Position numbers and translations under genes: made by a program
Shown here: positions 6,291 to 17,329 of the stretch, one piece after another
How positions within the stretch are numbered: the stretch's first letter is position 1
Layout: the number at the start of each line of letters is the position of its first letter
The notes under the pieces: model-generated
The model's database searches: none
What the model was told of the DNA's origin: nothing
The model's input: only the letters and a program-made list of their open reading frames with translations
Assembly: GCA_946406145.1 (NCBI GenBank)
Contig: CAMJJL010000019.1
Coordinates: 1-36,614, forward strand
DNA: 36,614 nucleotides
Direction of reading: 5' to 3'
From: an uncultured Clostridia bacterium
Lineage (GTDB): Bacteria > Bacillota > Clostridia > Oscillospirales > Acutalibacteraceae

Positions 6291-7604
6291 ATGATGAGAA
6301 AAATACTTCCCGTTACCCTGCTGACCGGTTATCTCGGCGCAGGTAAAACGACATTATTGAATCACGTGCTCAACAACCAGGAGGGCTACAAGGTTGCTGT
6401 CATCGTCAATGATATCGGCGAGGTCAATATTGATGCGGAGCTGATCCAGAAGGGCGGCGTCGTCAATGAGAAGGACGAGAACCTCGTGCCGCTCCAGAAC
6501 GGCTGTATCTGCTGTACCCTCAAGACCGATCTGATCGAGCAGATTTTGGGCTTAGTCGAACAGCAGAAATTCGATTACATCCTGATCGAGGCTTCGGGTA
6601 TCTGCGAGCCGATCCCGATCGCGCAGACCATCTCCATGCTTGACGGTTCCTACAACGATCCCCGACTGCCGAAGCTCTGCCGTCTGGATAACGTCGTATC
6701 CGTCGTTGACGCGGCTCGTCTGAGCAGTGAATTCGGCTGCGGCGGCTCACTGCTGAAGGATGATATCGACGACGAGGATATCGAGAACCTGCTGATCCAG
6801 CAGATCGAATTCTGCAATACCATCATCCTCAACAAGATCGACCTCGTCAGTGAGGAAGAGCTGGTCAATATCAAAAAGGTCATCCGCGCGCTCCAGCCCG
6901 AGGCGAAGATCATCGAGACCACCCGAGGCAAGGTGGAGATCAGCGAGATCCTGAATACCAACAACTTCGACTTTGACAAGGTCGCTTCCTCCGCCGCATG
7001 GGTGCAGGAGCTGAACGCCGACGTCGACGAGGATGACCATCACGATGGCGACCATCACGATGGCGAGTCCGAGCACGATCATCACCACCATGAGCATGAG
7101 GAACACGAGCATCATCACGACCATGATGAAGAGGAACACCATCATGACCACCACGATCATGAGCATGATCATGAAGAGAAAAGCAGCCACGGCAGCCATC
7201 ATCACCATCATCACCATGAGGGCGGTGAGGTAGAGGAGTACGGCATCGGTACCTTTGTGTACTATCGCCGTCAGCCGTTCACTAAGGATAAATTCGAGAA
7301 ATTCCTCGCTTCCTTCCCGAAGAACGTCATCCGTGCCAAGGGTCTGTTCTGGATCAAGGAGGACAAGGACTGGGCGATCATGTTCGAGCAGTCGGGCAAG
7401 CAGATGGACTGCACCGACTACGGTCAGTGGCTCGCCGCCGCTCCGGCGCATATCCGCCGCAAGATGTTTAAGGAGGATCCCGAGCTGCAGAAGGATTGGG
7501 ACGACAAGTACGGTGACCGTATGATCAAGCTGGTGTTCATCGGTCAGAACCTCGACAAAGAGGCGATCACTAAAGCATTGGATGACTGCTTGACGGAACT
7601 CTGA
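6291..7604 (+). CDS. CobW/ZNG1-family G3E GTPase, His-rich metallochaperone
   Basis: The product is 437 residues. Visible G3E motifs are the Walker A loop GYLGAGKT (13-20), the CxCC metal motif GCICC (71-75), IEASGICEP (Walker B/switch region, 99-107) and NKID (181-184). A C-terminal CobW_C domain (about 315-437) completes the family layout. Between the two lies a His/Asp/Glu-rich insert (about 246-310) with runs of up to seven His. Members of this family use GTP hydrolysis to deliver a metal, often zinc, to client enzymes; long His loops are seen in some and fit zinc or nickel/cobalt storage. No cobalamin genes lie nearby, so zinc is the likelier metal; this is inference. AAAGGA precedes the tandem ATG ATG start. 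The gene is alone between promoter and terminator. Confidence 0.93.
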   Translation: MMRKILPVTLLTGYLGAGKTTLLNHVLNNQEGYKVAVIVNDIGEVNIDAELIQKGGVVNEKDENLVPLQNGCICCTLKTDLIEQILGLVEQQKFDYILIEASGICEPIPIAQTISMLDGSYNDPRLPKLCRLDNVVSVVDAARLSSEFGCGGSLLKDDIDDEDIENLLIQQIEFCNTIILNKIDLVSEEELVNIKKVIRALQPEAKIIETTRGKVEISEILNTNNFDFDKVASSAAWVQELNADVDEDDHHDGDHHDGESEHDHHHHEHEEHEHHHDHDEEEHHHDHHDHEHDHEEKSSHGSHHHHHHHEGGEVEEYGIGTFVYYRRQPFTKDKFEKFLASFPKNVIRAKGLFWIKEDKDWAIMFEQSGKQMDCTDYGQWLAAAPAHIRRKMFKEDPELQKDWDDKYGDRMIKLVFIGQNLDKEAITKALDDCLTEL

Positions 7605-7613
7605 TATACAAAT

Positions 7614-7656
7614 CGTCATTGCGAGGCACATTGTTGTGCCGTGGCAATCTCAACCG
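7614..7656. repeat. 43-bp dispersed hairpin repeat, copy 1
   Basis: The sequence starts CGTCATTGCGAGG and ends CAATCTCAACCG, with GGCACA-TTGT-TGTGCC as the central stem and ATTGC/GCAAT as an outer stem. A second copy of identical length lies at 16332-16374 (31 of 43 positions identical). It sits ten bases after the CobW-type stop codon, before the terminator, so it is transcribed in the 3' UTR. Confidence 0.8.
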
Positions 7657-7669
7657 AATAAAAATACAT

Positions 7670-7707
7670 CGCTCATGGCTCTTTGAAAAAGCCATGAGCG
7701 TTTTTTA
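7670..7707 (+). terminator. Rho-independent terminator of the CobW-type gene
   Basis: CGCTCATGGCT (7670-7680) pairs perfectly with AGCCATGAGCG (7690-7700), followed by six T. Confidence 0.92.
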
Positions 7708-7766
7708 TTGTAATGTATTTTGTTAGATGAAATTGATTCAGGTGTGGACGGAGTCCATCATTTAGG

Positions 7767-7837
7767 CTCGCTTTGGTAAAGGGAGCTGTCTGTGGAGCAG
7801 ACTGAGGGATTGCATCAAATTGTCTGAGCAAAGCGAG
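7767..7837. repeat. 71-bp imperfect palindromic element
   Basis: The ends CTCGCTTTG (7767-7775) and CAAAGCGAG (7829-7837) are inverted copies, and an inner GTCTG/CAGAC hairpin lies between them. The right end (GAGCAAAGCGAG) resembles GAGCGAAGCGAG found before the MBOAT and murG genes. It lies between the CobW terminator and the 3' end of the convergent HAD gene and is probably non-coding repeat DNA. Confidence 0.5.
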
Positions 7838-7843
7838 TAACCC

Positions 7844-8662
7844 TCATTTCTCATTAGTCACGATTCCCAATTCCTCCAGCGCTTTTGCGATACCGTCGCG
7901 GTCGCAGTCATCGGTGACGCGGTCAGCTGCCGCTTTGAGCGCGTCCTCGGCGTTGCCCATCGCGATGCCCGTTCCTGCGGCTTTGATCATAAAAATATCG
8001 TTGAAGCTGTCGCCGAAGGCAACCGCGTCGCGGATATCGATCCCTGCGTCATCGCATATTTTACGCAGACCCTCGCCCTTGTTCGCCTGTTTGGGCATCA
8101 CCTCGAGGAACCACGGCGCGGAAAGGTAGATATCCACTTCGTTGCCGAGAGCACGGAGCAGCTGCTGTTCCAGCTCCTTGAGCTCCTTCGGATCGCCTGC
8201 GATCAGGAATTTGTGGATATCCCAGTCGATGAAATTCGGCAGGTCATCCACCACATTCAGCGGCAGGCCGATCACATCACTCTCGATGTGGGTGTAGTCG
8301 TTGACCTTATTGTCGGCATAGATCTTCGCGCCCTTGTGCACCATAGTGGTGACGTTCGTCGGACGGAGAATGTCATAGACAGGCTTGATGTATTGGCTGT
8401 CAAGATAGCATTTGCCGATCAGCTCATCACGGCTGTTCATAATCGCGCCGCCGTTGAAGCCCATGTAATAGCCGCCGTAGCGGAAAACCTCCAATTGCTC
8501 GGCAAAGGGACGCACGCCGTAGGGGAGCCGTCCCGACGCCACCGCGACCTTGACCCCGTTTTCCTGCGCCTGCAGCAATGCCGCCTTGGTAATGGGGGAG
8601 ATCTCCTTTTTTCGGTTGAGTAAGGTGTCGTCGATATCGACCGCGATCAGCTTGTATTTCAT
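7844..8662 (-). CDS. Cof-type HAD-family phosphatase
   Basis: The product is 272 residues from the ATG at 8660-8662, chosen because AGAGG lies just upstream and the family N-terminus (MKYKLIAVDIDDTLLN) starts there; upstream in-frame codons are not conserved-looking. HAD motifs are DIDDTLLN (nucleophile and acid/base Asp pair), VASGRLPYG (motif II region), Lys in QANKGEGL, and GDSFNDIFMIKAAG (metal-binding motif IV). The size and C2-type cap insertion between motifs II and III place it in the Cof/YidA subgroup, which dephosphorylates sugar phosphates, flavin or PLP-type phosphates. The substrate cannot be told from sequence. It is monocistronic and convergent with the CobW-type gene. Confidence 0.92.
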   Translation of the reverse strand: MKYKLIAVDIDDTLLNRKKEISPITKAALLQAQENGVKVAVASGRLPYGVRPFAEQLEVFRYGGYYMGFNGGAIMNSRDELIGKCYLDSQYIKPVYDILRPTNVTTMVHKGAKIYADNKVNDYTHIESDVIGLPLNVVDDLPNFIDWDIHKFLIAGDPKELKELEQQLLRALGNEVDIYLSAPWFLEVMPKQANKGEGLRKICDDAGIDIRDAVAFGDSFNDIFMIKAAGTGIAMGNAEDALKAAADRVTDDCDRDGIAKALEELGIVTNEK

Positions 8663-8693
8663 AAGATACCTCTGTGATTCCGTGTTTAACCAT

Positions 8694-8722
8694 ACGTTAC
8701 CACAAAAAGTCGAAGATGGCAA
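8694..8722 (-). promoter_or_regulatory. Possible promoter of the HAD phosphatase gene
   Basis: On the minus strand TTGCCA (8717-8722), 17 bases and TAACGT (8694-8699) preceded by TGG. The -10 box is weak, but spacing and position (32 bases before the start) fit. Confidence 0.4.
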
Positions 8723-8741
8723 GTTATTTTGAAAAAGAGGA

Positions 8742-8872
8742 TTGTAGGGGTCGGCGCCCCCGACGACCCGAACGATTGACAAGACGTCATCATAACGCGA
8801 AGCAGATGAAACCTGCAGAGGATGGCGCTTGCGACATTCCGCAACGCGGCAAAATTCCTCGCCCTACGGCAA
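8742..8872. repeat. Degenerate MITE-like element, TTGTAGGG family
   Basis: It begins TTGTAGGGGTCGGCG, the same end as the elements at 15502 and 24656, and closes with CCCTACGGCAA, a damaged form of their CCCTACAA end. The length (131 bp) equals that of the 15502 element. An inner GCGACATTC segment resembles the 24656 element. The rest of 8663-9113 holds only the HAD promoter, AT-rich DNA and the next operon's promoter. Confidence 0.5.
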
Positions 8873-9003
8873 ACATCCCCGATTATTCCTCGTTTTCGCT
8901 TTAACGCATTACCGCATCAGCATGAAATTTGTACAATTTTTTTCGCTGTGTGATGGGCAGGATAAAAAATCTGTAAAAAATCCCGTGAATCCTGAAAAAT
9001 GGA

Positions 9004-9031
9004 TTGAATTTTTTCAAAAATGTATTATAAT
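9004..9031 (+). promoter_or_regulatory. Promoter of the aminoacyl-transfer operon
   Basis: TTGAAT (9004-9009), a 16-base spacer and TATAAT (9026-9031). The start codon lies 83 bases further on. No other strong promoter was found before the end of the operon at 15450. Confidence 0.65.
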
Positions 9032-9113
9032 GTTAAGTGTATTATTGTGGATAATTATGGATACCTGTATCTTGTATACAAATCCGAAAGTTTCATGAAA
9101 GGATGTGCTGAAT

Positions 9114-10619
9114 ATGCAGACATCGGTTCTCGAACGCTTAGACGCGAGTGCTTCGCGCTATGCGGACAAAGTGATGTTCAAAGATCCCGAGCGCAGCCTG
9201 ACCTTCGGTCAGTTCGATTCGCTCACGAAGTCGATCGGTACTTACCTTGCCGGCGTTACCAAGCCCGGCGATCCGGTCGCCGTTATGTCCGGCAGACATG
9301 TGTACACCCCGTCATGCTTTTTGGGCGCTGTCAGAGCAGGCTGCTTTTACGCGCCGATGGACGGCGATATGCCCAAGCAAAGACTCAACCAGATCCTCTC
9401 CGTCATCAAGGCGCCGAATCTGTTGGTGGATCAGGCACATCTCGAGATGGCAAAGGCTCTCGAATATGACGGCAACATCATCGTGATGGAAGAGATCATG
9501 GAGACTGCTCCCGATGAGGCGCTGCTCGCTGAGCGTGCCGCGACGCTGGTTTGCACCTCGCCGCTGTATGTGATCTTCACCTCCGGCTCTACCGGTAAGC
9601 CCAAGGGCGTCATCACCTCGCACCTCTCATTGATGACCTATATTGATTCTGTGTGCAAGGTGCTCGATATCAACGATACCGACATCATGGGTAACCAGAG
9701 TCCTCTTGATTATATCGCGGCTGTCCGTGACATTTACTTCCCCATCAGCAAGGGCGCTTCCACCTTTATCATCCCGAAGAATGAGTTCGCCGTACCGACC
9801 GAGCTGTTCGGTACGCTGAACCGTGAGAAGATCACCGCGCTGTGCTGGAGCGTCGCAGGCGTTGAGATCCCTGCAAAGCTGGGCGCTTTTGACGAGAGCA
9901 AGCCCGAATACCTCAAAAAGCTCTGCTTCTCCGGCTCGGTCATGCCCTGTAAGTACCTCAAGATCTGGCAGGAGCATCTGCCCGACGTCCTCTATGTCAA
10001 CCAGTACGGTCCCACCGAGTCTACCGCGTCCTGCACCTACTATGTGGTCAGGGACAAGGTCGATGACGATACCGTGCTCCCGATCGGTAAGCCGTATGAT
10101 AACTACAAGATCATGCTCCTCAATGACGACAATACGCCGACCCCCGACGGCGAGATCGGTCAGATCTGCGTCAGCGGCCCGATCCTGGCGCTGGGCTACT
10201 ACGGCAACCGAGAAGTTACTGACGAGTCCTTCCTCCAGAATCCGCTCAATCCGAACTACCGCGAGCTGATTTACAAGACCGGCGACCTCGGCAGATGGGG
10301 TGAGGACGGCAACCTGATGTTCCACGGTCGTATGGATCGCCAGATCAAGCATCTGGGTCACCGCATTGAGCTGGGCGAGATTGAAGAGACCGCTAAGCTC
10401 GTCGAGGGCGTCAAGGATTGCTGCGCGCTGTACAACAAGCCCAAGGCGACCTTGTACCTCTTCTACACCGGCGACGCGACCAGCAGAGATATCGTGCTCT
10501 ATTTCAGAGCCAACATGCCTGCCTTCATGGTGCCGCGTAAGCTCGTCAACCTCGAGGAGATGCCCACCCTGCCCAACGGCAAGCTGGATATGCAGGCGCT
10601 CAAGGCAATGTTCAAATAA
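9114..10619 (+). CDS. AMP-forming amino-acid:carrier-protein ligase (DltA-like adenylation enzyme)
   Basis: The product is 501 residues from ATG 9114; AAAGGA is ten bases upstream, whereas the in-frame GTG at 9105 would sit on top of it. All core adenylation motifs are present: the P-loop FTSGSTGKPKG (155-165), YGPTEST (298-304), YKTGDLGRW, GRMDRQIKHLGHRIELGEIE, and the catalytic Lys490 in LPNGKLD. The length fits DltA, a stand-alone adenylation enzyme that loads an amino acid onto a small carrier protein. The next gene encodes such a carrier. DltA uses D-alanine, but the decarboxylase in this operon argues for a different substrate, perhaps a dicarboxylic or diamino acid; this is inference. 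A MITE-like element begins right after the stop codon. Confidence 0.88.
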   Translation: MQTSVLERLDASASRYADKVMFKDPERSLTFGQFDSLTKSIGTYLAGVTKPGDPVAVMSGRHVYTPSCFLGAVRAGCFYAPMDGDMPKQRLNQILSVIKAPNLLVDQAHLEMAKALEYDGNIIVMEEIMETAPDEALLAERAATLVCTSPLYVIFTSGSTGKPKGVITSHLSLMTYIDSVCKVLDINDTDIMGNQSPLDYIAAVRDIYFPISKGASTFIIPKNEFAVPTELFGTLNREKITALCWSVAGVEIPAKLGAFDESKPEYLKKLCFSGSVMPCKYLKIWQEHLPDVLYVNQYGPTESTASCTYYVVRDKVDDDTVLPIGKPYDNYKIMLLNDDNTPTPDGEIGQICVSGPILALGYYGNREVTDESFLQNPLNPNYRELIYKTGDLGRWGEDGNLMFHGRMDRQIKHLGHRIELGEIEETAKLVEGVKDCCALYNKPKATLYLFYTGDATSRDIVLYFRANMPAFMVPRKLVNLEEMPTLPNGKLDMQALKAMFK

Positions 10620-10620
10620 T

Positions 10621-10780
10621 TGCCTTCCCCTTGAGGGGAAGGTGTCGCCGCCGGCTGAGGCGGTGACGGATGAGGTGGAAGCGTTTCCATCTCATGACAT
10701 TGATTGTTGTTTCGGAGAGGTATCCACCTCATCCGACCAATTCGCAAGCGGATTGCCCACCTTCCCCTCAAAGGGAAGGC
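10621..10780. mobile_element. MITE-like palindromic element between ligase and carrier-protein genes
   Basis: The ends TGCCTTCCCCTTGAGG... and ...TTTGAGGGGAAGG read as near-perfect 24-bp terminal inverted repeats (one mismatch), with an inner GGATGAGGTGG/CCACCTCATCC repeat. AATAAT flanks the element on both sides (10615-10620 and 10781-10786) and may be a target duplication, although it is low complexity. It contains no open reading frame worth calling. It has inserted at the ligase stop codon inside the operon and would form a long hairpin in the mRNA. Confidence 0.75.
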
Positions 10781-10840
10781 AAATAATCGTATATTACCAC
10801 AAGGTGATAAGATAAAATAATTCTAAAGGAGAAATTTATC

Positions 10841-11068
10841 ATGGATCAATTAATGAAAATCTTGCAGGAACTCAGACCCGACGTAGATTTTGAGAAAGAA
10901 ACCGCTCTGATCACCGACGGTATTCTCGATTCCTTCGATATCGTAGCGCTCGTAGGCGAGCTCAACGATGAGTTTGATATCGAGATCAAGCCGAACAATC
11001 TCGTTCCCGAAAACTTCAACTCCGCCAAGGCGATGATGGCGCTGATCGAGAAGCTGCAGGACGAATAA
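10841..11068 (+). CDS. Acyl/aminoacyl carrier protein (DltC-like)
   Basis: The product is 75 residues. The phosphopantetheine attachment site is Ser31 in GILDSFDIVAL, followed by the acidic helix II GELNDEFDIEI and a short C-terminal helix. This is the size and shape of DltC or of small stand-alone acyl carrier proteins. It would carry the amino acid activated by the upstream ligase as a thioester, requiring a holo-ACP synthase encoded elsewhere. AAAGGAG lies before the ATG. It follows the MITE-like element and precedes the decarboxylase by 80 bases that include a perfect 9-bp hairpin GCCTCCCTG/CAGGGAGGC (11094-11115) without a T-run. Confidence 0.9.
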   Translation: MDQLMKILQELRPDVDFEKETALITDGILDSFDIVALVGELNDEFDIEIKPNNLVPENFNSAKAMMALIEKLQDE

Positions 11069-11148
11069 TCTGTCGGCACACCATGACGAATCCGCCTCCC
11101 TGTTCTCAGGGAGGCAGAACGTTGCTATGTACAATATAAAGGAATAGT

Positions 11149-12339
11149 ATGATGAATATCAATAAATTACAGGAGCTCCTGCCTCAGGTCGGAACCCCTT
11201 CCTATATTTTTGATCTCGATCTGTTCGAAAAGCGTGCCGCATTAGTGAAGAAATACTTCGGCGATACGATCGGTCTGTGCTTTTCTATCAAAGCCAATCC
11301 GTTTTTGCTGGGCAGAATGCCCGAGCAGTTCGACAAGATCGAAGTTTGCTCTCCCGGTGAGCTGACGGTTTGTGAGCGCACCGGCGTCGATATGCGTACG
11401 ATTATCTTCTCAGGCGTCAACAAGGGCTACGCGGATGTAGAGCGTGCCGCAGACGATAACGTCGGTACCTTCACCGCCGAATCCCCTCTGCACCTCGAGC
11501 TGATCAACGACGCGGCTCTTCGCAGAGGCAAGGTGTTTGACCTGCTGCTGCGCGTGACCGATATCAAGGGCGGCAGCCAGTTCGGCATGAGCGAGGAATG
11601 TACCCTCGACATCATCCGCCGCCGCGATGAATATAAGGGCGTCAATATCGTCGGCCTGCACTACTTTACCGGTACGGCAAAGCGCAAAGCGAAACCCATC
11701 GAGCGAGAGTGCGATTACCTGATGGATCTGACCGCCCGCATCAAGAACGACCTCGGCTTTACCGTTGCGCGTATCGAATACGGTACGGGACTCGCGGTCG
11801 ACTACTTCTCCGACAATGCCGACGCTGAGGAAGAGGAGCGTCTTGCTTCGATCTCTCCGAAGCTGCAGGAGCTGGCTCAGGTCGCTGAGCTGACCGTCGA
11901 GATGGGTCGCTTCTTCGCGGCTCCCTGCGGTTATTATCTGACCAAGGTCGTGGATACCAAGACCAATTTTGATATCAATTACGCGATCGTGGACGGCGGC
12001 ATGAATCAGGTCAAGTACAACGGTCAGCTGCAGGGCATGCAGATCCCCGAGATCCTGCACCTTACCGACCGCAACAAGGCGGCGGATCAAAAGCCGTGGA
12101 CACTGTGCGGCTCTATCTGCACCACCGCGGATATTCTGGCGCGCAACGCGGAATTTGATGATCTGCAGATCGGCGACGTCCTCGTGTTCTGCCGCACCGG
12201 CGCTTACTCCTGCATGGAGGGTATCTCCACCTTCCTCAGCCGCGAAATGCCGGTCATCGCCGAATACAGTGAGAAAGAGGGTCTCAGGATCCTGCGCGAA
12301 ATGCTGTATTCCGACGAGTTCAATACACCAAAAAGATAA
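11149..12339 (+). CDS. Fold-type III PLP-dependent decarboxylase (group IV, LysA/BtrK-like)
   Basis: The product is 396 residues with tandem ATG codons at 11149 and 11152 after AAAGGA. Signatures of the alanine-racemase-fold decarboxylases are present: the PLP lysine Lys48 in CFSIKANP, CSPGELTVCERTG, GLHYFTGTAKR in place of the usual 'GlH.HiGS', EYGTGLAVDY in place of the glycine-rich phosphate loop, EMGRFFAAPCGYYLTKV, and the dimer-interface Cys324 in GSICTTAD followed by GAYSCMEG. These are the marks of diaminopimelate/ornithine-type decarboxylases, but the altered loops suggest a different substrate. Relatives such as BtrK (butirosin) and the exosortase-associated decarboxylases work next to a carrier protein. 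A role on an ACP-bound amino acid is therefore plausible. lysA itself is less likely given the context. Confidence 0.88.
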   Translation: MMNINKLQELLPQVGTPSYIFDLDLFEKRAALVKKYFGDTIGLCFSIKANPFLLGRMPEQFDKIEVCSPGELTVCERTGVDMRTIIFSGVNKGYADVERAADDNVGTFTAESPLHLELINDAALRRGKVFDLLLRVTDIKGGSQFGMSEECTLDIIRRRDEYKGVNIVGLHYFTGTAKRKAKPIERECDYLMDLTARIKNDLGFTVARIEYGTGLAVDYFSDNADAEEEERLASISPKLQELAQVAELTVEMGRFFAAPCGYYLTKVVDTKTNFDINYAIVDGGMNQVKYNGQLQGMQIPEILHLTDRNKAADQKPWTLCGSICTTADILARNAEFDDLQIGDVLVFCRTGAYSCMEGISTFLSREMPVIAEYSEKEGLRILREMLYSDEFNTPKR

Positions 12340-12421
12340 TCAAATCGGAGAAAGGATAACGGAGAACTGAGAACGGATAAAAGACCGCTGAGCAGCTGCA
12401 ATACTGAAAATAGTATTGATT

Positions 12422-12474
12422 GAGCGAAGCGAGATACCGCCACCATTCACCATTCACCGTTCACCATTCACCGG
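12422..12474. repeat. GAGCGAAGCGAGA box plus four CACCRTT heptamers (copy 1)
   Basis: GAGCGAAGCGAGA (12422-12434) is followed by CACCATT, CACCATT, CACCGTT, CACCATT in tandem (12441-12468) and a partial unit. The same composite lies before murG (23459-23510). The array ends 19 bases before the MBOAT start codon. Just upstream is an AATACT/AGTATT inverted repeat (12400-12417). Confidence 0.85.
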
Positions 12475-12487
12475 ATTAAGGTTCATT

Positions 12488-14119
12488 ATGACTTATACAT
12501 CAATCAATTTCATTTTCTTTGTGCTGGCGACCGCGCTGATCTACTTCATCCTGCCGTGGAAGAAGTATCGCTGGACGGTGCTCCTCGCCGCGAGTGCGAT
12601 CTTCTATTGCCTCGCAAGCTACAAGTACGCCGTATTCATCCTGTTTACGGCGCTGAGCACCCTGCTCATCGGCTTGTGGCTGGACAAGGTAAACACGAGC
12701 TCCAAGGCGCTCCTCAAATCGAAGAAGGGCGAATGGGATCGCGAACAAAAGAAAGCGTTCAAAAATAAGCTGAAGGTCAAGAAACGCTGGATCATGGCGC
12801 TGTGCCTGATCCTCAACTTCGGTATCCTGGCTTTCTTAAAGTATTATAACTTCTTTGCCGGTTCCCTGAACGACATCCTCGGCTCGATGCGCATCGACTT
12901 TTCGGCTCCTACCTTAAAGCTCTTTTTACCGCTGGGTATCTCGTTCTACACCTTCCAGAGCATGGGCTATATCGTGGACGTCTACCGCGAGAAGGTCAAG
13001 CCGCAGACCAACCCCTTCAAGTTCCTGCTGTTTGTCTCCTTCTTTCCGCAGATCATCCAGGGTCCGATCAGCAACTATTCGCAGCTCGGTCATCAGCTCT
13101 TTGAGGGTCATGACTTTGACTTCACCCGTTTCAAATACGGTTCTCAGCTGATTTTATGGGGCTTCTTCAAGAAGCTGGTCATCGCCGACAGAGCGGTCGT
13201 GGCGATCAATACCGTCACCGCTACCGCGCAGGGCTACAATAAGTATTCCGGCACGACGCTGACCTTTACCATCCTGCTCTACGCGTTCCAGCTGTACGCC
13301 GACTTCTCGGGCGGTATCGATATCTCCCGCGGTGTGGCACAGCTCTTCGGCATCGATCTGATCGACAACTTCAAACGTCCGTACTTCTCAAAGAGCATCA
13401 ATGAATACTGGCGCAGATGGCATATCTCGCTCGGCGCGTGGATGAAGGATTACATCTTCAATCCGCTGGCGATCAGCTCGGCGTTTCTCAACGCGAGCAA
13501 GAAGATGCGCGGCACCAAGTTCGGCAAGACCAAAGCCGGCGCGCATATCGCCAAGGTGCTGCCCACCGCCTTTGCTTCGCTGATCGTCTTTTTGGTCGTC
13601 GGTATCTGGCACGGCGCGAATTATAAATATGTCGCGTTTGGCGTCTGGAACGGCGGTATCATCATGCTGTCGATCTTAATGCAGCCGCTGTTTGACGCCG
13701 TGACCGACAAGCTGCATATCAACCGCGGGAACTTCTTCTTCCGCCTGTTCCAGATGATCCGTACCTTTATCGTGGTACTCGTCGGCTATGTCTTTGATGT
13801 AGCGCCCTCGTTCAATCAGGGCATGATGACCATCGGCCGCTTCTTCACCGACCAGAGCATTGAGCGCGGCAGAGCGGAGATCTTCAAGCTCGGTCTGGAC
13901 TGGAAGGATTATGTGCTGCTGCTGGTATGCGTGGTCGTGATCTGGTCTGTCAGCATGATCCAGGAAAAGCATTCCGATACCACGATCCGCGAGATGCTGG
14001 ACAAAAAGCCCTTCATTCTGCGCTGGCTGGTATTCTTCTTCCTGATAATGGCGGTCATCATCTTCGGTATCTACGGCTCCGGCTACGCTGCATCCGACTT
14101 TGTCTATATGCAGTTCTGA
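12488..14119 (+). CDS. MBOAT-family O-acyltransferase (DltB/AlgI-like)
   Basis: The product is 543 residues from ATG 12488, where the hydrophobic N-terminus begins and TTAAGG lies upstream; the frame remains open into the heptamer repeat before it, which is not counted as coding. Ten or more membrane helices are evident. MBOAT landmarks are FPQIIQGPISNYSQL, RRWHISLGAWMKDYIFNPL (His312) and GIWHGANYKYVAFG with the likely catalytic His375. DltB is usually near 400 residues; this length and sequence style are closer to AlgI, the alginate O-acetyltransferase channel. These proteins pass an acyl group from a cytoplasmic donor to an acceptor outside. Here the donor would be the carrier protein upstream and the partner the SGNH protein downstream. 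Confidence 0.92.
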   Translation: MTYTSINFIFFVLATALIYFILPWKKYRWTVLLAASAIFYCLASYKYAVFILFTALSTLLIGLWLDKVNTSSKALLKSKKGEWDREQKKAFKNKLKVKKRWIMALCLILNFGILAFLKYYNFFAGSLNDILGSMRIDFSAPTLKLFLPLGISFYTFQSMGYIVDVYREKVKPQTNPFKFLLFVSFFPQIIQGPISNYSQLGHQLFEGHDFDFTRFKYGSQLILWGFFKKLVIADRAVVAINTVTATAQGYNKYSGTTLTFTILLYAFQLYADFSGGIDISRGVAQLFGIDLIDNFKRPYFSKSINEYWRRWHISLGAWMKDYIFNPLAISSAFLNASKKMRGTKFGKTKAGAHIAKVLPTAFASLIVFLVVGIWHGANYKYVAFGVWNGGIIMLSILMQPLFDAVTDKLHINRGNFFFRLFQMIRTFIVVLVGYVFDVAPSFNQGMMTIGRFFTDQSIERGRAEIFKLGLDWKDYVLLLVCVVVIWSVSMIQEKHSDTTIREMLDKKPFILRWLVFFFLIMAVIIFGIYGSGYAASDFVYMQF

Positions 14120-14180
14120 CGGACAACGCAGTGCTGTGCTCATCCGCCTAAGTATGATGTATGGAATATGAGGCAAACCT

Positions 14181-15401
14181 ATGAAAAAGAAACTTTATAT
14201 CACGCGCGGTCTGAAGCTGCTGTCCTTCGGACTCGCGGTGGTTTTATTAACTCTACTGCTTCAGACCTTTTTGCTGAAGCGTATCGATAACAATACGATG
14301 CGTATGGAGGCGTTCTATCTCGAGGAGAAGAACACCGTCGACGCGGTTCTGATCGGCGCGAGCGACGTCTACGCCGGCTATTCCGCTCCCTACGCGTATG
14401 AAAAATACGGCTACACCAGCTATCCCTACGCGACCCAGAGCTCTCCGGCGAACATCGTTCTGCCGCAGATCAAGGAGGTTCTGAAGTACCAGAACCCCAA
14501 GATGGTCATCGTAGAGATCAACGCGTTCCTGTACAGAGACAGTGAGCTGCCCAATGAGGCGAGCGCGCGTATGTTCGCGGATAACGTGCCCAGAGACAGT
14601 ATCTGGCGTGATTATCTCAAGGACGCGATCCCCGAGGATAAGCAGATCGAGTATTATCTGCCGATCATCAAGTACCACAGCTCGTGGAACGAGTATCCGT
14701 GGAAGATCAAGTATCTCAACGCGGAGCTCGGACTCAAGCAGAGGGGGTATTCCTTATTCCGCGGTTACAAGACCGTTGCCAACGAGTTCCATTGTACGAC
14801 AAAGATTTATAACGATGAGATCAAGGATAAAAACGACACCCTGCCCTTGGCGGTCAACGGTGAACGTTATCTGAGGCAGACGCTGGAGTATCTCAAGGAC
14901 AATAACATCACCAACGTGATGTTCATGCGATTCCCTCATATCGTTTCCGATTCCGCATACAACCGCTTCAAGCGCTGTAATGAGGCAGCGAGGATCATCG
15001 AGAGCTACGGCTACGATTTCGTCAACCTCGAGCGCCACGGCGACTGGGCAGGCATCGACGTCAACACGGATTACTACAACTGGGATCATCTGAACATCTA
15101 CGGCTCCGAGAAGGTCACCGACTATGTTGCCAATATGCTGCAGACAAAGTACGGCATTACCAAGACCGAGCTGACAGATAAGCAGGTAGCCGAATGGAAT
15201 GATTCGGTCAACTACTATCATATGATCTACAATTACAGCCAGGAGATGATCAAACGCCGTCTGGAGCTGGGTAAGACCGGCAACGGCGGTACGACCGTAT
15301 CCGAGGATGAAAAGAGTATCAACACCATCAAGCAGTACGCGCGTAATCACCCCGGGGAGGGTAAGTATGAAGTGATTCTCGATGATGAGGAAGAATCATA
15401 A
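14181..15401 (+). CDS. Membrane-anchored SGNH-type protein (DltD/AlgJ-like)
   Basis: The product is 406 residues. One N-terminal membrane helix (about 11-33) is followed by an extracytoplasmic domain. The nucleophile motif is GASDVYAGYS (Ser61, as in the GxSD/E blocks of DltD and AlgJ/AlgX), and the C-terminal Asp302-His303 pair lies in YNWDHLNIYGSEK. This completes an SGNH catalytic set. Such proteins partner an MBOAT to move the acyl group onto the final polymer. The tail (about 350-406) is charged and low complexity. The start ATG follows GAGG. It is the last gene of the operon and is followed by a hairpin terminator. The acceptor polymer, whether teichoic acid or another surface glycan, is not revealed by the sequence. 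Confidence 0.88.
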   Translation: MKKKLYITRGLKLLSFGLAVVLLTLLLQTFLLKRIDNNTMRMEAFYLEEKNTVDAVLIGASDVYAGYSAPYAYEKYGYTSYPYATQSSPANIVLPQIKEVLKYQNPKMVIVEINAFLYRDSELPNEASARMFADNVPRDSIWRDYLKDAIPEDKQIEYYLPIIKYHSSWNEYPWKIKYLNAELGLKQRGYSLFRGYKTVANEFHCTTKIYNDEIKDKNDTLPLAVNGERYLRQTLEYLKDNNITNVMFMRFPHIVSDSAYNRFKRCNEAARIIESYGYDFVNLERHGDWAGIDVNTDYYNWDHLNIYGSEKVTDYVANMLQTKYGITKTELTDKQVAEWNDSVNYYHMIYNYSQEMIKRRLELGKTGNGGTTVSEDEKSINTIKQYARNHPGEGKYEVILDDEEES

Positions 15402-15417
15402 GAATATCGATCAAGCC

Positions 15418-15450
15418 AAGGCTCTCGCAGAAATGCGGGGGCCTTAATTA
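15418..15450 (+). terminator. Hairpin terminator of the aminoacyl-transfer operon
   Basis: AAGGCTCTCGCA (15418-15429), a GAAA tetraloop and TGCGGGGGCCTT (15434-15445) form a 12-bp stem with G-U pairs. The T-run after it is poor (AATTAAT), so termination may be partial. Confidence 0.65.
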
Positions 15451-15452
15451 AT

Positions 15453-15480
15453 GAGGAGTGAGGAGTGAGGAGTGAGGAGT
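15453..15480. repeat. Four tandem GAGGAGT heptamers
   Basis: Four perfect head-to-tail copies of a 7-bp unit follow the operon terminator. Three other four-copy heptamer arrays with different units lie at 12441, 23386 and 23478. Confidence 0.9.
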
Positions 15481-15501
15481 TGCCGAACGCTGAAACGTTT
15501 A

Positions 15502-15632
15502 TTGTAGGGTACGGCGCTTGCCGACTTACCGAGAATGACGGGTGTTTCTTGTATCGAAAACGTCAGATAGGAAATAAACGATCCAGCCATGCGGTACGTC
15601 GAACACGCGTGTTCAAATGCCGTACCCTACAA
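15502..15632. mobile_element. MITE-like element, TTGTAGGG family (131 bp)
   Basis: Perfect 14-bp terminal inverted repeats, TTGTAGGGTACGGC and GCCGTACCCTACAA, bound a short non-coding interior. Short reading frames across it do not look like genes. No target duplication is evident (TTA against ATC). The rest of 15402-15910 holds the terminator, the heptamer array, about 170 bases with no recognisable feature, and the dcw promoter. Confidence 0.8.
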
Positions 15633-15809
15633 ATCCGCTGCAATGTCCCGAACCCTTCCGCTACATGTCACCCAAACTCGAAGCAATCAACCGCCCCTAT
15701 ATGCGCGCAAGACCGCCTGATCCACCACATCTTGATACCCTTCAAAAAACTATACAAAGATATTGGTGAAGAATTTGTAAAATTTATGATAAAAATGTTA
15801 CAGATTCCC

Positions 15810-15838
15810 TTGATTTTATCTGTATCATGGTATATAAT
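15810..15838 (+). promoter_or_regulatory. dcw promoter upstream of mraZ
   Basis: TTGATT (15810-15815), a 17-base spacer and TATAAT (15833-15838), about 73 bases before the mraZ start and next to the MraZ-box-like repeats. Confidence 0.72.
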
Positions 15839-15846
15839 AGGTTCGT

Positions 15847-15871
15847 TGGTGGCGTTTAGTGTCATTTTGTG
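15847..15871 (+). promoter_or_regulatory. MraZ-box-like triple repeat
   Basis: TGGTG, TAGTG and TTGTG start at 15847, 15857 and 15867, an exact 10-bp period, just downstream of the dcw -10 box. MraZ is known to repress its own operon by binding several short direct repeats at helical-turn spacing. The pentamer here (TNGTG) differs from the TGGGN form described in E. coli, so the match rests on spacing and location. Confidence 0.55.
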
Positions 15872-15910
15872 ACACATAATGTCCGAGAATCACCAAAAGG
15901 AGGCGGCAGA

Positions 15911-16330
15911 ATGTTTTTAGGTACCAGTGATCATCATCTTGACAGCAAAGGCAGAGTCATTCTGCCGACCGATTTCAGAGAACAGCTCGGCGAGAGCTTT
16001 TACATCACTATGGGCTTTAACCGATGCGCTCAGGTGATGAGCGTCGAAGAGTTCGACCGTCTGCGTGAGCAGATCCGTCAGCTGCCTGCCGATAAGGCGC
16101 TCTCGCTCCAATACCTCCTGATCTCTCCGGCAAAGCTCGTCAGCCCCAACTCGCAGGGCAGGATCATCATTCCGCAAAAGCTCCGCGAGGATGTCGGACT
16201 CAGCGCCGACGTTACCGTAGTCGGTATGGACTCGCGCATCGAGATCTGGGATAAGGCGACCTTTGAGGAATATATGGAACAGCAGAAGAAGGACAGTATC
16301 AAGGAAGCGCTCGAGCTGCTGCGCCTGTAA
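15911..16330 (+). CDS. mraZ: Transcriptional regulator MraZ
   Basis: The product is 139 residues from ATG 15911, chosen because AAAAGGAGG lies eight bases upstream and the family N-terminus (MFLGTSDHHLDSKGRVILP) starts there. Two SpoVT/AbrB-like halves are visible, each with a D(S/N)xGR-type turn: DSKGRVILPTDFR and NSQGRIIIPQKLRE. MraZ forms a ring of subunits that binds repeat DNA at the head of dcw clusters and controls them. It is the first gene of the division cluster here, as is usual, and candidate binding repeats lie in its own leader. Confidence 0.96.
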   Translation: MFLGTSDHHLDSKGRVILPTDFREQLGESFYITMGFNRCAQVMSVEEFDRLREQIRQLPADKALSLQYLLISPAKLVSPNSQGRIIIPQKLREDVGLSADVTVVGMDSRIEIWDKATFEEYMEQQKKDSIKEALELLRL

Positions 16331-16331
16331 A

Positions 16332-16374
16332 CGTCATCGTAAGGGATTCCATTATCCCGTGACAATCTCAACCG
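16332..16374. repeat. 43-bp dispersed hairpin repeat, copy 2
   Basis: It has the same length and ends as 7614-7656 (CGTCAT... and ...CAATCTCAACCG), but the central stem is GGGAT/ATCCC instead of GGCACA/TGTGCC. The changes keep the pairing. It lies between mraZ and rsmH inside the dcw transcript, beginning right after the mraZ stop codon. Confidence 0.75.
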
Positions 16375-16405
16375 ATTGAATACGACAGAAAGTGAGTGTC
16401 TGCGC

Positions 16406-17329
16406 ATGGAGTTCAACCATGTTTCCGTACTGCTGAATGAAGCGGTCGATAGCTTGAATATCCGCGAAGACGGCGTCTATGTCGACGGCACTGCCGGCGG
16501 CGGCGGACACTCTGCTGCGATCCTCTCGCGTCTGACGACGGGAACGCTGTACAGCATCGATCAGGATCCCGACGCGATCGCGACCGTCACCGAGCGTTTT
16601 CGCGGTGACAGCCGTTCGCGTATCATCGAGGGCAACTTCGGCGAAATGAGCCGGCTGTTGCACGATATCGGGGTCGAAGCCGTAGACGGTGTACTGCTCG
16701 ATATCGGTGTATCGTCCCATCAGCTCGATGAAGGATCCCGCGGTTTTTCCTATCACGTGGACGCGCCGCTGGATATGCGCATGAGTCAAAGCGGAGAGAC
16801 TGCCGCCGATCTGGTCAACACCCTGTCGGTCGGTGAGCTCAGTCGTATTCTCTCACTCTACGGAGAGGAAAAGTACGCCTATTCCATTGCGAAGGGGATC
16901 GCGCGATATCGCGAGACGAAGCGGATCGAATCGACCCTGGAGCTGGCGGAACTCATCAAGGATAACGTACCGCAAAAGGTGCGTCGGGACGGACATCCTG
17001 CGCGCAAATCCTTTCAGGCGATCCGTATCGCGGTCAACCATGAGCTCGATGTGCTTGAAAGCGGCTTACAGGGCGCCTTTGAAATGCTCAACCAGGGCGG
17101 ACGACTCAGCGTCATCACCTTTCATTCGCTGGAGGATCGCATCGTCAAGCAGTTTATGCGTGACAAAGCGCAGGGCTGTACCTGCCCGAAGGACTTCCCC
17201 GTGTGCGTATGCGGCAAAAAACCGCAGGTCAGGATCATCACGCGCAAGCCGATCTGTCCCTCAGAGGAGGAAAATGAGCGCAATCCGAGGGCTCGTTCGG
17301 CAAAGCTCAGAGTCTGTGAAAGGCTTTAA
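16406..17329 (+). CDS. rsmH: 16S rRNA (cytosine-1402-N4)-methyltransferase RsmH
   Basis: The product is 307 residues from ATG 16406, where the conserved MEFNHVSVLLNEAVD opening starts; the ribosome site is weak (AAAGTGAG). Family motifs are DGTAGGGGHS (SAM-binding loop), DQDPDAI, FSYHVDAPLDMRM, HPARKSFQAIRIAVNHEL, FHSLEDRIVKQFM and the C-terminal RNPRARSAKLRVCERL. Length and order are typical. It methylates C1402 of 16S rRNA in the decoding centre. It is also called mraW and is almost always next to mraZ. Confidence 0.97.
   Translation: MEFNHVSVLLNEAVDSLNIREDGVYVDGTAGGGGHSAAILSRLTTGTLYSIDQDPDAIATVTERFRGDSRSRIIEGNFGEMSRLLHDIGVEAVDGVLLDIGVSSHQLDEGSRGFSYHVDAPLDMRMSQSGETAADLVNTLSVGELSRILSLYGEEKYAYSIAKGIARYRETKRIESTLELAELIKDNVPQKVRRDGHPARKSFQAIRIAVNHELDVLESGLQGAFEMLNQGGRLSVITFHSLEDRIVKQFMRDKAQGCTCPKDFPVCVCGKKPQVRIITRKPICPSEEENERNPRARSAKLRVCERL

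What the first reader, a model, noticed from the sequence alone, without database searches (positions are those of the whole stretch)
9114..15401. dlt-like operon with a built-in PLP decarboxylase: possible transfer of a decarboxylated aminoacyl group to a surface polymer
Seen: ligase, carrier protein, fold-III decarboxylase, MBOAT and SGNH protein in one direction under one promoter. Known: DltA/C/B/D put D-alanine on teichoic acid without a decarboxylase; BtrK decarboxylates a glutamyl group while it is bound to an ACP; ligase, ACP and PLP decarboxylase also occur together near Gram-negative exosortase loci. Inferred: the ligase loads an acidic or diamino acid, the decarboxylase acts on the carrier-bound form, and the MBOAT/SGNH pair exports the product (for example a GABA- or beta-alanine-type group). 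Decarboxylating carrier-bound alanine is chemically impossible, so canonical D-alanylation would leave the decarboxylase without a role on the carrier.
Basis: partly seen in the sequence, partly recalled or inferred. Interest (0 to 1): 0.75.

Follow-up and report, generated by a model that had tools for sequence, protein, structure and literature searches.

The report
Surface amine-tailoring cassette with built-in decarboxylase
Ruminococcus relatives, some of them from the guts of ruminants, and scattered genomes elsewhere in their class carry a five-gene cassette that joins Dlt-like amino-acid loading and export genes to a decarboxylase-family gene whose enzyme likely trims the amino acid while it sits on its carrier, which would decorate the cell surface with an amine other than the usual D-alanine.

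Summary
Ligase, carrier protein, fold-III PLP enzyme, MBOAT and SGNH-type protein lie on one strand at 9114-15401. The cassette is not unique to this strain: all five genes stand together in 17 of 19 near loci (the other two are cut by contig ends) and in 16 of 19 distant genomes, with shuffled gene order.

The PLP enzyme is not the genome's only LysA-like protein. It keeps the catalytic lysine and cysteine but has Thr where DAP decarboxylases have the Glu that reads DAP's distal amine; BtrK and two other decarboxylases beside ACP genes or frames also have Thr. DltA's D-alanine pocket is changed: the Met site is Arg (Lys in most kin) and, in the window and its nearest kin, the amino-binding Asp is Ile. 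This predicts an acidic substrate, not D-Ala.

New here: the MBOAT ends in FVYMQF, an acyl-shuttle motif that canonical Dlt keeps on a separate protein, DltX.

Substrate, on-carrier decarboxylation and acceptor polymer are inferred, not shown. Glu to GABA or Asp to beta-alanine is favoured; DAP to lysyl remains possible. It is a new variant of a known kind (MBOAT-SGNH surface acylation).

The parts
9114..10619 (+). ANL-family amino-acid:carrier-protein ligase (DltA-like, 501 aa)
   Evidence: PF00501 196 bits; TIGR01733 313.5 bits, below its cut-off of 317.4; TIGR01734 DltA 233 bits against a cut-off of 560
9693..9737 (+). ligase pocket motif NQSPLDYIAAVRDIY: Asp199, Ile201 (site of DltA's amino-binding Asp), Arg205 (site of DltA's cavity Met)
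   Evidence: ungapped alignment with kin (NQAPFDFDVSVKDIY) and DltA (NQAPFSFDLSVMDVY); 120 of 120 nearest listed proteins have Ile201, 119 of 120 have Arg205
10841..11068 (+). stand-alone acyl/peptidyl carrier protein (75 aa)
   Evidence: PF00550 21.4 bits; NF003464 DltC 34 bits against a cut-off of 68
10931..10933 (+). Ser31, predicted phosphopantetheine site (ILDSFD)
   Evidence: sequence; the Ser is present in all 18 distant loci in which the ACP was found
11149..12339 (+). fold-III PLP decarboxylase-family protein (396 aa)
12118..12123 (+). Cys324-Thr325: catalytic Cys kept, distal-amine Glu of DAP decarboxylase replaced
   Evidence: Cys324 invariant in 33 of 33 rows; Thr or Ser at the next residue in 20 of 20 cassette proteins and in 240 of 240 listed homologues of two searches
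12488..14119 (+). MBOAT-family membrane acyltransferase (543 aa)
   Evidence: PF03062 69 bits; DltB structures at E 1.5e-22; GIWHG with the MBOAT His
14099..14116 (+). C-terminal acyl-shuttle motif FVYMQF (FXYXXF), predicted acyl-Tyr carrier
   Evidence: sequence; a C-terminal hexapeptide xxYxxF in 35 of the 36 kin MBOATs listed, the 36th (L009) ending at a stop 11 bases before its contig's end; function of the motif from PMC12148441
14181..15401 (+). membrane-anchored SGNH-type protein (406 aa), Ser61 and Asp302-His303
   Evidence: AlphaFold2 and VIA-align; Ser61 invariant in 14 of 14 rows
9004..9031 (+). promoter-like site upstream of the ligase
   Evidence: TTGAAT-16-TATAAT; a consensus match only, no evidence of use

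Best explanation
The cassette encodes a Dlt-like surface-tailoring system in which the ligase is predicted to load an acidic amino acid onto the carrier protein through its side-chain carboxyl, the PLP enzyme would then remove the free alpha-carboxyl on the carrier, and the MBOAT/SGNH pair likely passes the resulting GABA- or beta-alanine-type group, by way of the MBOAT's own C-terminal tyrosine, to a surface polymer. Shown by sequence: the gene set and its conservation; changes at the D-Ala pocket sites and gain of Lys/Arg in the ligase; loss of two DAP distal-group readers (the Glu315 and Arg285 sites) with the catalytic Lys and Cys kept; the MBOAT His and shuttle Tyr; the SGNH Ser. Inferred: which acid (Glu or Asp favoured), that decarboxylation happens on the carrier, the direction of export, and the acceptor.
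For: Cassette conserved in 17 of 19 near loci and 16 of 19 distant genomes, with four gene orders counting the window's, so the genes are kept together rather than merely inherited together. Pocket: basic residue at the DltA Met site in 20 of 20 cassette ligases (19 distant plus the window). Decarboxylase: Thr or Ser at the Glu315 site in 20 of 20 cassette proteins, and Thr in BtrK, in an exosortase-A-associated decarboxylase with an ACP-like frame after it and in a Streptomyces enzyme beside an ACP, against Glu in 8 of 8 LysA proteins compared; E315T in the Thermotoga enzyme loses most DAP activity (PMC8277567, abstract and passages). The model's best structural match is BtrK, by a small margin. 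Chemistry has precedent: VinO decarboxylates 3-MeAsp on its ACP after VinN loads it (PMC11284099, passages and section 5). MBOAT shuttle motif, with its role shown for PatA and reported for DltX (PMC12148441, abstract and passages). Two-component genes beside 5 of the 13 first distant loci.
Against: Asp at the amino-binding site in 18 of 19 distant kin, plus Lys, also suits ordinary alpha-carboxyl activation of Glu, whose product could not be decarboxylated on the carrier. The window and its nearest kin lack that Asp, so window and distant kin may differ in substrate. G137 has ligase, ACP and decarboxylase with no MBOAT/SGNH in the stretch fetched. SGNH His is Pro in L060 and its neighbour Asp is Tyr in L068. 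In G166 no other LysA-like protein was found. GABA thioesters tend to close to a lactam (recalled). Acceptor unclear: glycerophosphotransferase (PF04464) over cut-off in 7 of 14 cassette genomes, sulfatase domain (PF00884, which includes LtaS but also other enzymes; E up to 1e-20) in 9 of 14, and G228 has neither at these thresholds.
Confidence: 0.55

Rival explanations
1. meso-DAP is loaded through its L-centre carboxyl, the PLP enzyme decarboxylates the D-centre on the carrier, and the system puts lysyl groups on the surface.
For: The enzyme is a LysA relative and DAP decarboxylases act at the D-centre (PMC8277567). Asp and Lys at the pocket sites of 18 of 19 kin suit an alpha-amino group plus a far carboxyl. 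Thioester masking of the L-centre would explain loss of the Arg285 site.
Against: The Glu that reads the distal amine is lost in 20 of 20, although that amine would still be present; the same change in the Thermotoga enzyme removes most DAP activity. The window ligase lacks the amino-binding Asp.
Confidence: 0.15
2. The PLP enzyme decarboxylates a free acid first (for example Glu to GABA or Asp to beta-alanine), and the ligase then loads the omega-amino acid.
For: Gives the same exported group; a free-acid decarboxylase also feeds a carrier ligase in incednine (IdnL3, PMC11284099 passage).
Against: A basic pocket residue in 20 of 20 ligases makes little sense for a substrate with no second carboxyl; the nearest structural match is the ACP-dependent BtrK.
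Confidence: 0.12
3. Diverged D-alanylation: the PLP enzyme is a racemase or bystander and the group put on the surface is an ordinary alanine or another alpha-amino acid.
For: Public records name four of the 120 listed relatives alanine racemase; the ligase scores 233 bits to the DltA model; no DltA over cut-off in any of 14 cassette genomes, so the cassette could stand in for it.
Against: DltA pocket sites changed. Cys324, the site of the decarboxylases' catalytic Cys, is kept in 33 of 33 rows.
Confidence: 0.08
4. Ligase, ACP and decarboxylase make a small secreted metabolite, and the MBOAT/SGNH pair is an unrelated O-acetyltransferase that happens to sit beside them.
For: BtrK (PDB titles) and VinO serve antibiotics; fused shuttle motifs are typical of MBOATs thought to use acyl-CoA (PMC12148441), and the genome's three other MBOATs have one too; G137 lacks the pair in the stretch fetched.
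Against: The pair stands with the trio in 16 of 19 distant genomes, and in G419 the MBOAT stands there with a different SGNH-like frame.
Confidence: 0.07

Closest known systems
Dlt system (DltA, DltB, DltC, DltD, DltX)
   Same: ligase, carrier protein, MBOAT with active His and SGNH protein in one cluster; acyl shuttle through a Tyr hexapeptide
   Different: extra decarboxylase; D-Ala pocket sites changed; shuttle hexapeptide fused to the MBOAT instead of on DltX; ligase, ACP and MBOAT fall short of the curated Dlt cut-offs and the SGNH protein matches no NCBIfam model
BtrI/BtrJ/BtrK (butirosin side chain)
   Same: LysA-like enzyme with Thr at the Glu315 site; best structural match; named L-glutamyl-[BtrI ACP] decarboxylase in the PDB
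   Different: serves an antibiotic; cassette enzymes form their own clade (support 1.000); BtrJ is an ATP-grasp ligase (recalled), not an ANL ligase
VinN/VinL/VinO and FlvN (macrolactam starters)
   Same: ANL ligase loads an acidic amino acid on a stand-alone ACP and a carboxyl is removed on the ACP (PMC11284099)
   Different: feeds a polyketide synthase; no MBOAT or SGNH protein among the parts the review names; sequences not compared here
PatA/PatB and other MBOAT-SGNH O-acetyltransferases
   Same: MBOAT with fused C-terminal FXYXXF motif plus SGNH partner
   Different: use acyl-CoA, not a dedicated ligase and carrier protein (PMC12148441)
Exosortase-A-associated ligase/decarboxylase pair (TIGR03098, TIGR03099)
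   Same: adjacent ANL ligase and fold-III decarboxylase with CT motif, ACP-like frame after them in S. meliloti
   Different: window proteins score 167 and 171 bits against cut-offs of 592 and 478; pocket motif differs; sits among glycosyltransferases; function unknown to me

Membership tests
Dlt D-alanylation system | DltA equivalog score (TIGR01734, cut-off 559.85 bits) | tested here: not met
   233.1 bits; some DltA-like proteins of the class also fall short of this cut-off, at 483-551 bits
Dlt D-alanylation system | D-Ala pocket: amino-binding Asp, Leu/Met/Cys cavity | tested here: not met
   Ile, Ala, Arg, Ser at these sites
Dlt D-alanylation system | DltC and DltB equivalog scores | tested here: not met
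   DltC 34.2 of 68; DltB 136.1 of 375 bits
Dlt D-alanylation system | DltD-type SGNH partner | tested here: inconclusive
Dlt D-alanylation system | transfer of D-Ala to teichoic acid | not testable with these tools
   needs biochemistry
DAP decarboxylase (LysA) | TIGR01048 score (cut-off 297.9 bits) | tested here: not met
   184.2 bits; note that the genome's other LysA-like protein also falls short, 263.8
DAP decarboxylase (LysA) | Glu315 and Arg285 (distal amine and carboxylate readers) | tested here: not met
   Thr325 and a YNGQ stretch instead; the Arg249 site is kept
Carrier-bound amino-acid decarboxylase (BtrK type) | PLP Lys, catalytic Cys, Thr at the Glu315 site, beside ACP and ligase genes | tested here: met
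Carrier-bound amino-acid decarboxylase (BtrK type) | acts on aminoacyl-ACP | not testable with these tools
   needs enzyme assay
MBOAT-SGNH envelope acyltransferase pair | MBOAT His, C-terminal Tyr hexapeptide, SGNH Ser | tested here: met
   GIWHG, FVYMQF, Ser61
Exosortase-A ligase/decarboxylase (TIGR03098/TIGR03099) | curated cut-offs 592.35 and 478.45 bits | tested here: not met
   167.4 and 170.9 bits

The most novel reading that the evidence does not exclude
A carrier-dependent envelope tailoring pathway that is not D-alanylation: an acidic amino acid is loaded by its side chain, decarboxylated on the carrier, and moved through an MBOAT that carries its own acyl-Tyr shuttle, giving beta-alanyl or GABA esters on a Clostridia surface polymer. 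It would be a Dlt-PatA hybrid with a chemistry step that I found in none of the envelope papers listed by my ten searches.
Probability: 0.45. Interest if true: 0.78.

Novelty: new variant of a known kind. Interest (0 to 1): 0.62.

Why it matters
D-alanylation is the well-known way by which a ligase, a carrier protein and an MBOAT-SGNH pair add amines to surface polymers, and it lowers the envelope's negative charge and helps against cationic peptides (abstract start of PMC12838833 in the listing). A second, carrier-based route with a different amine, made in place by decarboxylation, would explain how some Clostridia tune surface charge without a canonical dltA: none of 14 cassette genomes has a DltA over the curated cut-off. 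It would also give a role to many proteins now named diaminopimelate decarboxylase or alanine racemase. Searches scored 4090 and 5671 matches, but these sets overlap in kind and include other fold-III enzymes, so they are upper bounds. It also suggests a test for the exosortase-A ligase/decarboxylase pair.

Tried and rejected
Sole-lysA reading: rejected for the window genome. 12 of 14 cassette genomes have another TIGR01048 match of at least 258 bits, 2 of them over the cut-off; G355 has only a 136-bit one, and G166 (1.3 Mb, 97% complete) has none besides the cassette enzyme, so there the reading stays open. The Glu/Arg motifs were checked in 7 of those other LysA-like proteins.

Mutual exclusion with canonical Dlt: DltA-like proteins (E up to 1e-130, 483 bits or more; 3 of 17 over the curated cut-off) in 17 of 391 class genomes, the cassette enzyme (225 bits or more) in 14 of 391, overlap 0; but chance alone predicts about 0.6, so this shows nothing.

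Weaker decarboxylase relatives: 10 of the 24 matching genomes score at most 145.5 bits. Seven loci from 6 of these 10 were fetched and searched with the window's proteins: none has the MBOAT or SGNH gene; distant ligase matches (22-25% identity) lie some kilobases away in 4 of the 7, and weak ACP matches in 2. The other 4 genomes were not looked at.

Conserved neighbours as a clue to the acceptor: nothing constant beyond two-component genes in 5 of 13 loci; an 857-aa relative of the kinases lies 1.4 kb after the cassette in a sixth, L068. PF04464 and PF00884 gave no common polymer. Rfam: no match over gathering scores in 7500-17000. Foldseek for the SGNH model: no match at E up to 0.001. One protein query of the plasmid collection gave 58 records, all under 60% identity.

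Print: ten searches. Searches returned nothing; others returned papers (in some only 10 of 13 and of 14 were listed), and none of the titles and abstract starts listed describes this cassette. The library lacks most subscription papers. Papers seen: passages of PMC11284099 (and its section 5), PMC8277567, PMC12148441, PMC11035591, PMC4176424 and PMC8972799; others as search listings only.

Recalled, from no call: the Lys-containing Glu code of NRPS domains, numbering of adenylation-domain positions, the lactam tendency of GABA thioesters, BtrJ as an ATP-grasp enzyme.
Full report
WHAT IS THERE. The window (contig C19 of a 2.42-Mb genome, 95% complete) carries five genes on the + strand between a HAD hydrolase on the other strand and mraZ and mraW, the start of the division cluster (PF02381 110 bits, PF01795 385 bits). 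They are a ligase (9114-10619), a carrier protein (10841-11068), a fold-III PLP enzyme (11149-12339), an MBOAT (12488-14119) and an SGNH-type protein (14181-15401). The nearest named records are Ruminococcus and other Clostridia assemblies, some with ruminant gut sources in their titles. A single promoter is plausible but unproven. The 221-base gap after the ligase holds a repeat with 74 matches in the genome, itself and both-strand matches included, so that gap is probably an insertion.

CONSERVATION. In 19 near loci the five genes keep the same order in 17, and the other two are cut by contig ends. Among 391 genomes of the class, 24 match the PLP enzyme at E up to 1e-30: 14, the window's genome included, at 225 bits or more, and 10 at 145.5 or less. 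Searches with a profile (E up to 1e-70) found it in 4 of 398 genomes of the phylum and 13 of 295 of the order. These surveys overlap. Together they give 19 distant genomes besides the window's: 13, one and five. All five genes stand together in 16 of 19. The exceptions are G334 (contig ends after the decarboxylase), G137 (ligase, ACP and decarboxylase only in the 16.5 kb fetched) and G419 (four genes by BLAST, with a different SGNH-like frame next to the MBOAT, read by eye). Gene order varies: ligase-ACP-decarboxylase-MBOAT-SGNH, ligase-decarboxylase-ACP-MBOAT-SGNH, decarboxylase-ACP-ligase-MBOAT-SGNH (L070, L072) and MBOAT-SGNH-ligase-decarboxylase-ACP (L060). Staying together while the order is reshuffled is good evidence of one joint function.

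LIGASE. It is an amino-acid adenylating enzyme just below the cut-off for NRPS-type domains and far below DltA. DltA holds D-Ala's amino group with an Asp and its methyl group in a cavity of Leu, Met and Cys (PMC8972799 passage; Cys269 also PMC4176424 passages). In an ungapped alignment these sites read Ile201, Ala202, Arg205 and Ser in the window. In 18 of 19 distant kin the Asp site is Asp and the Met site is Lys; the exception, L136 from the same genus, has Ile and Arg like the window. Of the 120 nearest listed proteins, 120 have Ile and 119 have Arg. The Cys site is Ser in the 18 cassette ligases aligned (window, 13 distant loci, L135 and three near kin), but DltA-like proteins of the class have Cys or Ala there and Met or Ile at the Met site, so only the basic residue and the lost Asp stand out. 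A basic residue at the bottom of the pocket fits a second carboxyl. That Lys at this site also occurs in the Glu code of NRPS adenylation domains is recalled; a text search for that code found no paper. Loss of the Asp in the window and its nearest kin fits an amino group that is not next to the activated carboxyl, but this is inference.

EXPORT. The MBOAT matches DltB structures (E 1.5e-22) and has the MBOAT His in GIWHG. A new point is its C-terminus, FVYMQF. PatA uses the Tyr of a C-terminal FXYXXF motif as acyl carrier; in the Dlt pathway the same hexapeptide sits on the microprotein DltX, and other MBOAT/SGNH pathways have the fused motif but lack a carrier protein (PMC12148441, abstract and passages). 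A C-terminal hexapeptide of the form xxYxxF ends 35 of 36 kin MBOATs; the 36th, L009, ends at a stop 11 bases before its contig's end. The first position is Phe in the near kin, L136, L070, L072 and L135, and Pro or Leu in the rest. The genome's three other MBOATs have FIYFRF or FLYFRF, so a fused shuttle by itself does not tie an MBOAT to a carrier protein. The cassette thus seems to join a Dlt-like carrier with a PatA-like fused shuttle. The SGNH protein has an invariant Ser61 (14 of 14 rows), and its model fits SGNH esterases and DltD. Two of 14 SGNH rows lack the His or the Asp beside it.

MECHANISM AND DOUBTS. The simplest reading is: ATP-driven loading of Glu or Asp through the side chain, decarboxylation on the carrier as in VinN/VinL/VinO (PMC11284099), then transfer to the MBOAT Tyr, to the SGNH Ser and to a polymer hydroxyl. 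Glu is favoured by the Lys site and by BtrK, Asp by the stability of beta-alanyl esters and their likeness to alanyl esters (recalled chemistry). DAP to lysyl is the main rival. The acceptor is open: genes for glycerol-phosphate teichoic acids are not common to the cassette genomes. Two-component genes beside 5 of 13 loci and mraZ after the cassette in 12 of 19 near loci, several of the others being cut, fit an envelope role but do not prove it.

VERDICT. Observation confirmed; interpretation partly supported and made more specific; a new variant of the MBOAT-SGNH and Dlt kind. The decisive experiments are simple in vitro assays.

Noticed in passing
window 10620-10792: A roughly 160-170-base element with inverted-repeat arms (GGGGAAGG type) in the ligase-ACP gap has 74 matches in the genome (itself and both-strand matches counted), a MITE-like repeat family.
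   Followed up: partly
window 12440-12475: Short tandem ccattca/ccgttca units in the decarboxylase-MBOAT gap, possibly another small repeat.
   Followed up: no
window 6291-7604: CobW-family GTPase (PF02492, 182 bits) with a long His-rich stretch, a likely metal chaperone.
   Followed up: no
own genome contigs C7 and C25: Several NRPS-like adenylation domains (open frames to 1980 codons); two C25 matches contain an in-frame stop in the scan.
   Followed up: no
L141 8100-8500 (S. meliloti pSymB): An unannotated ACP-like frame (LDSFAVV) follows the exosortase-A-associated ligase/decarboxylase pair, so that pair may also work on a carrier.
   Followed up: partly
phage collection hits H16-H20: Unannotated 'Bacteriophage sp.' records from human faeces encode MBOATs 33-40% identical to the window's; bacterial DNA in the viral set is likely.
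   Followed up: no
L135 (G419): Cassette in a genome outside the window's class but in its phylum, with a different SGNH-like partner (GTSHGFS), suggesting partner exchange.
   Followed up: partly
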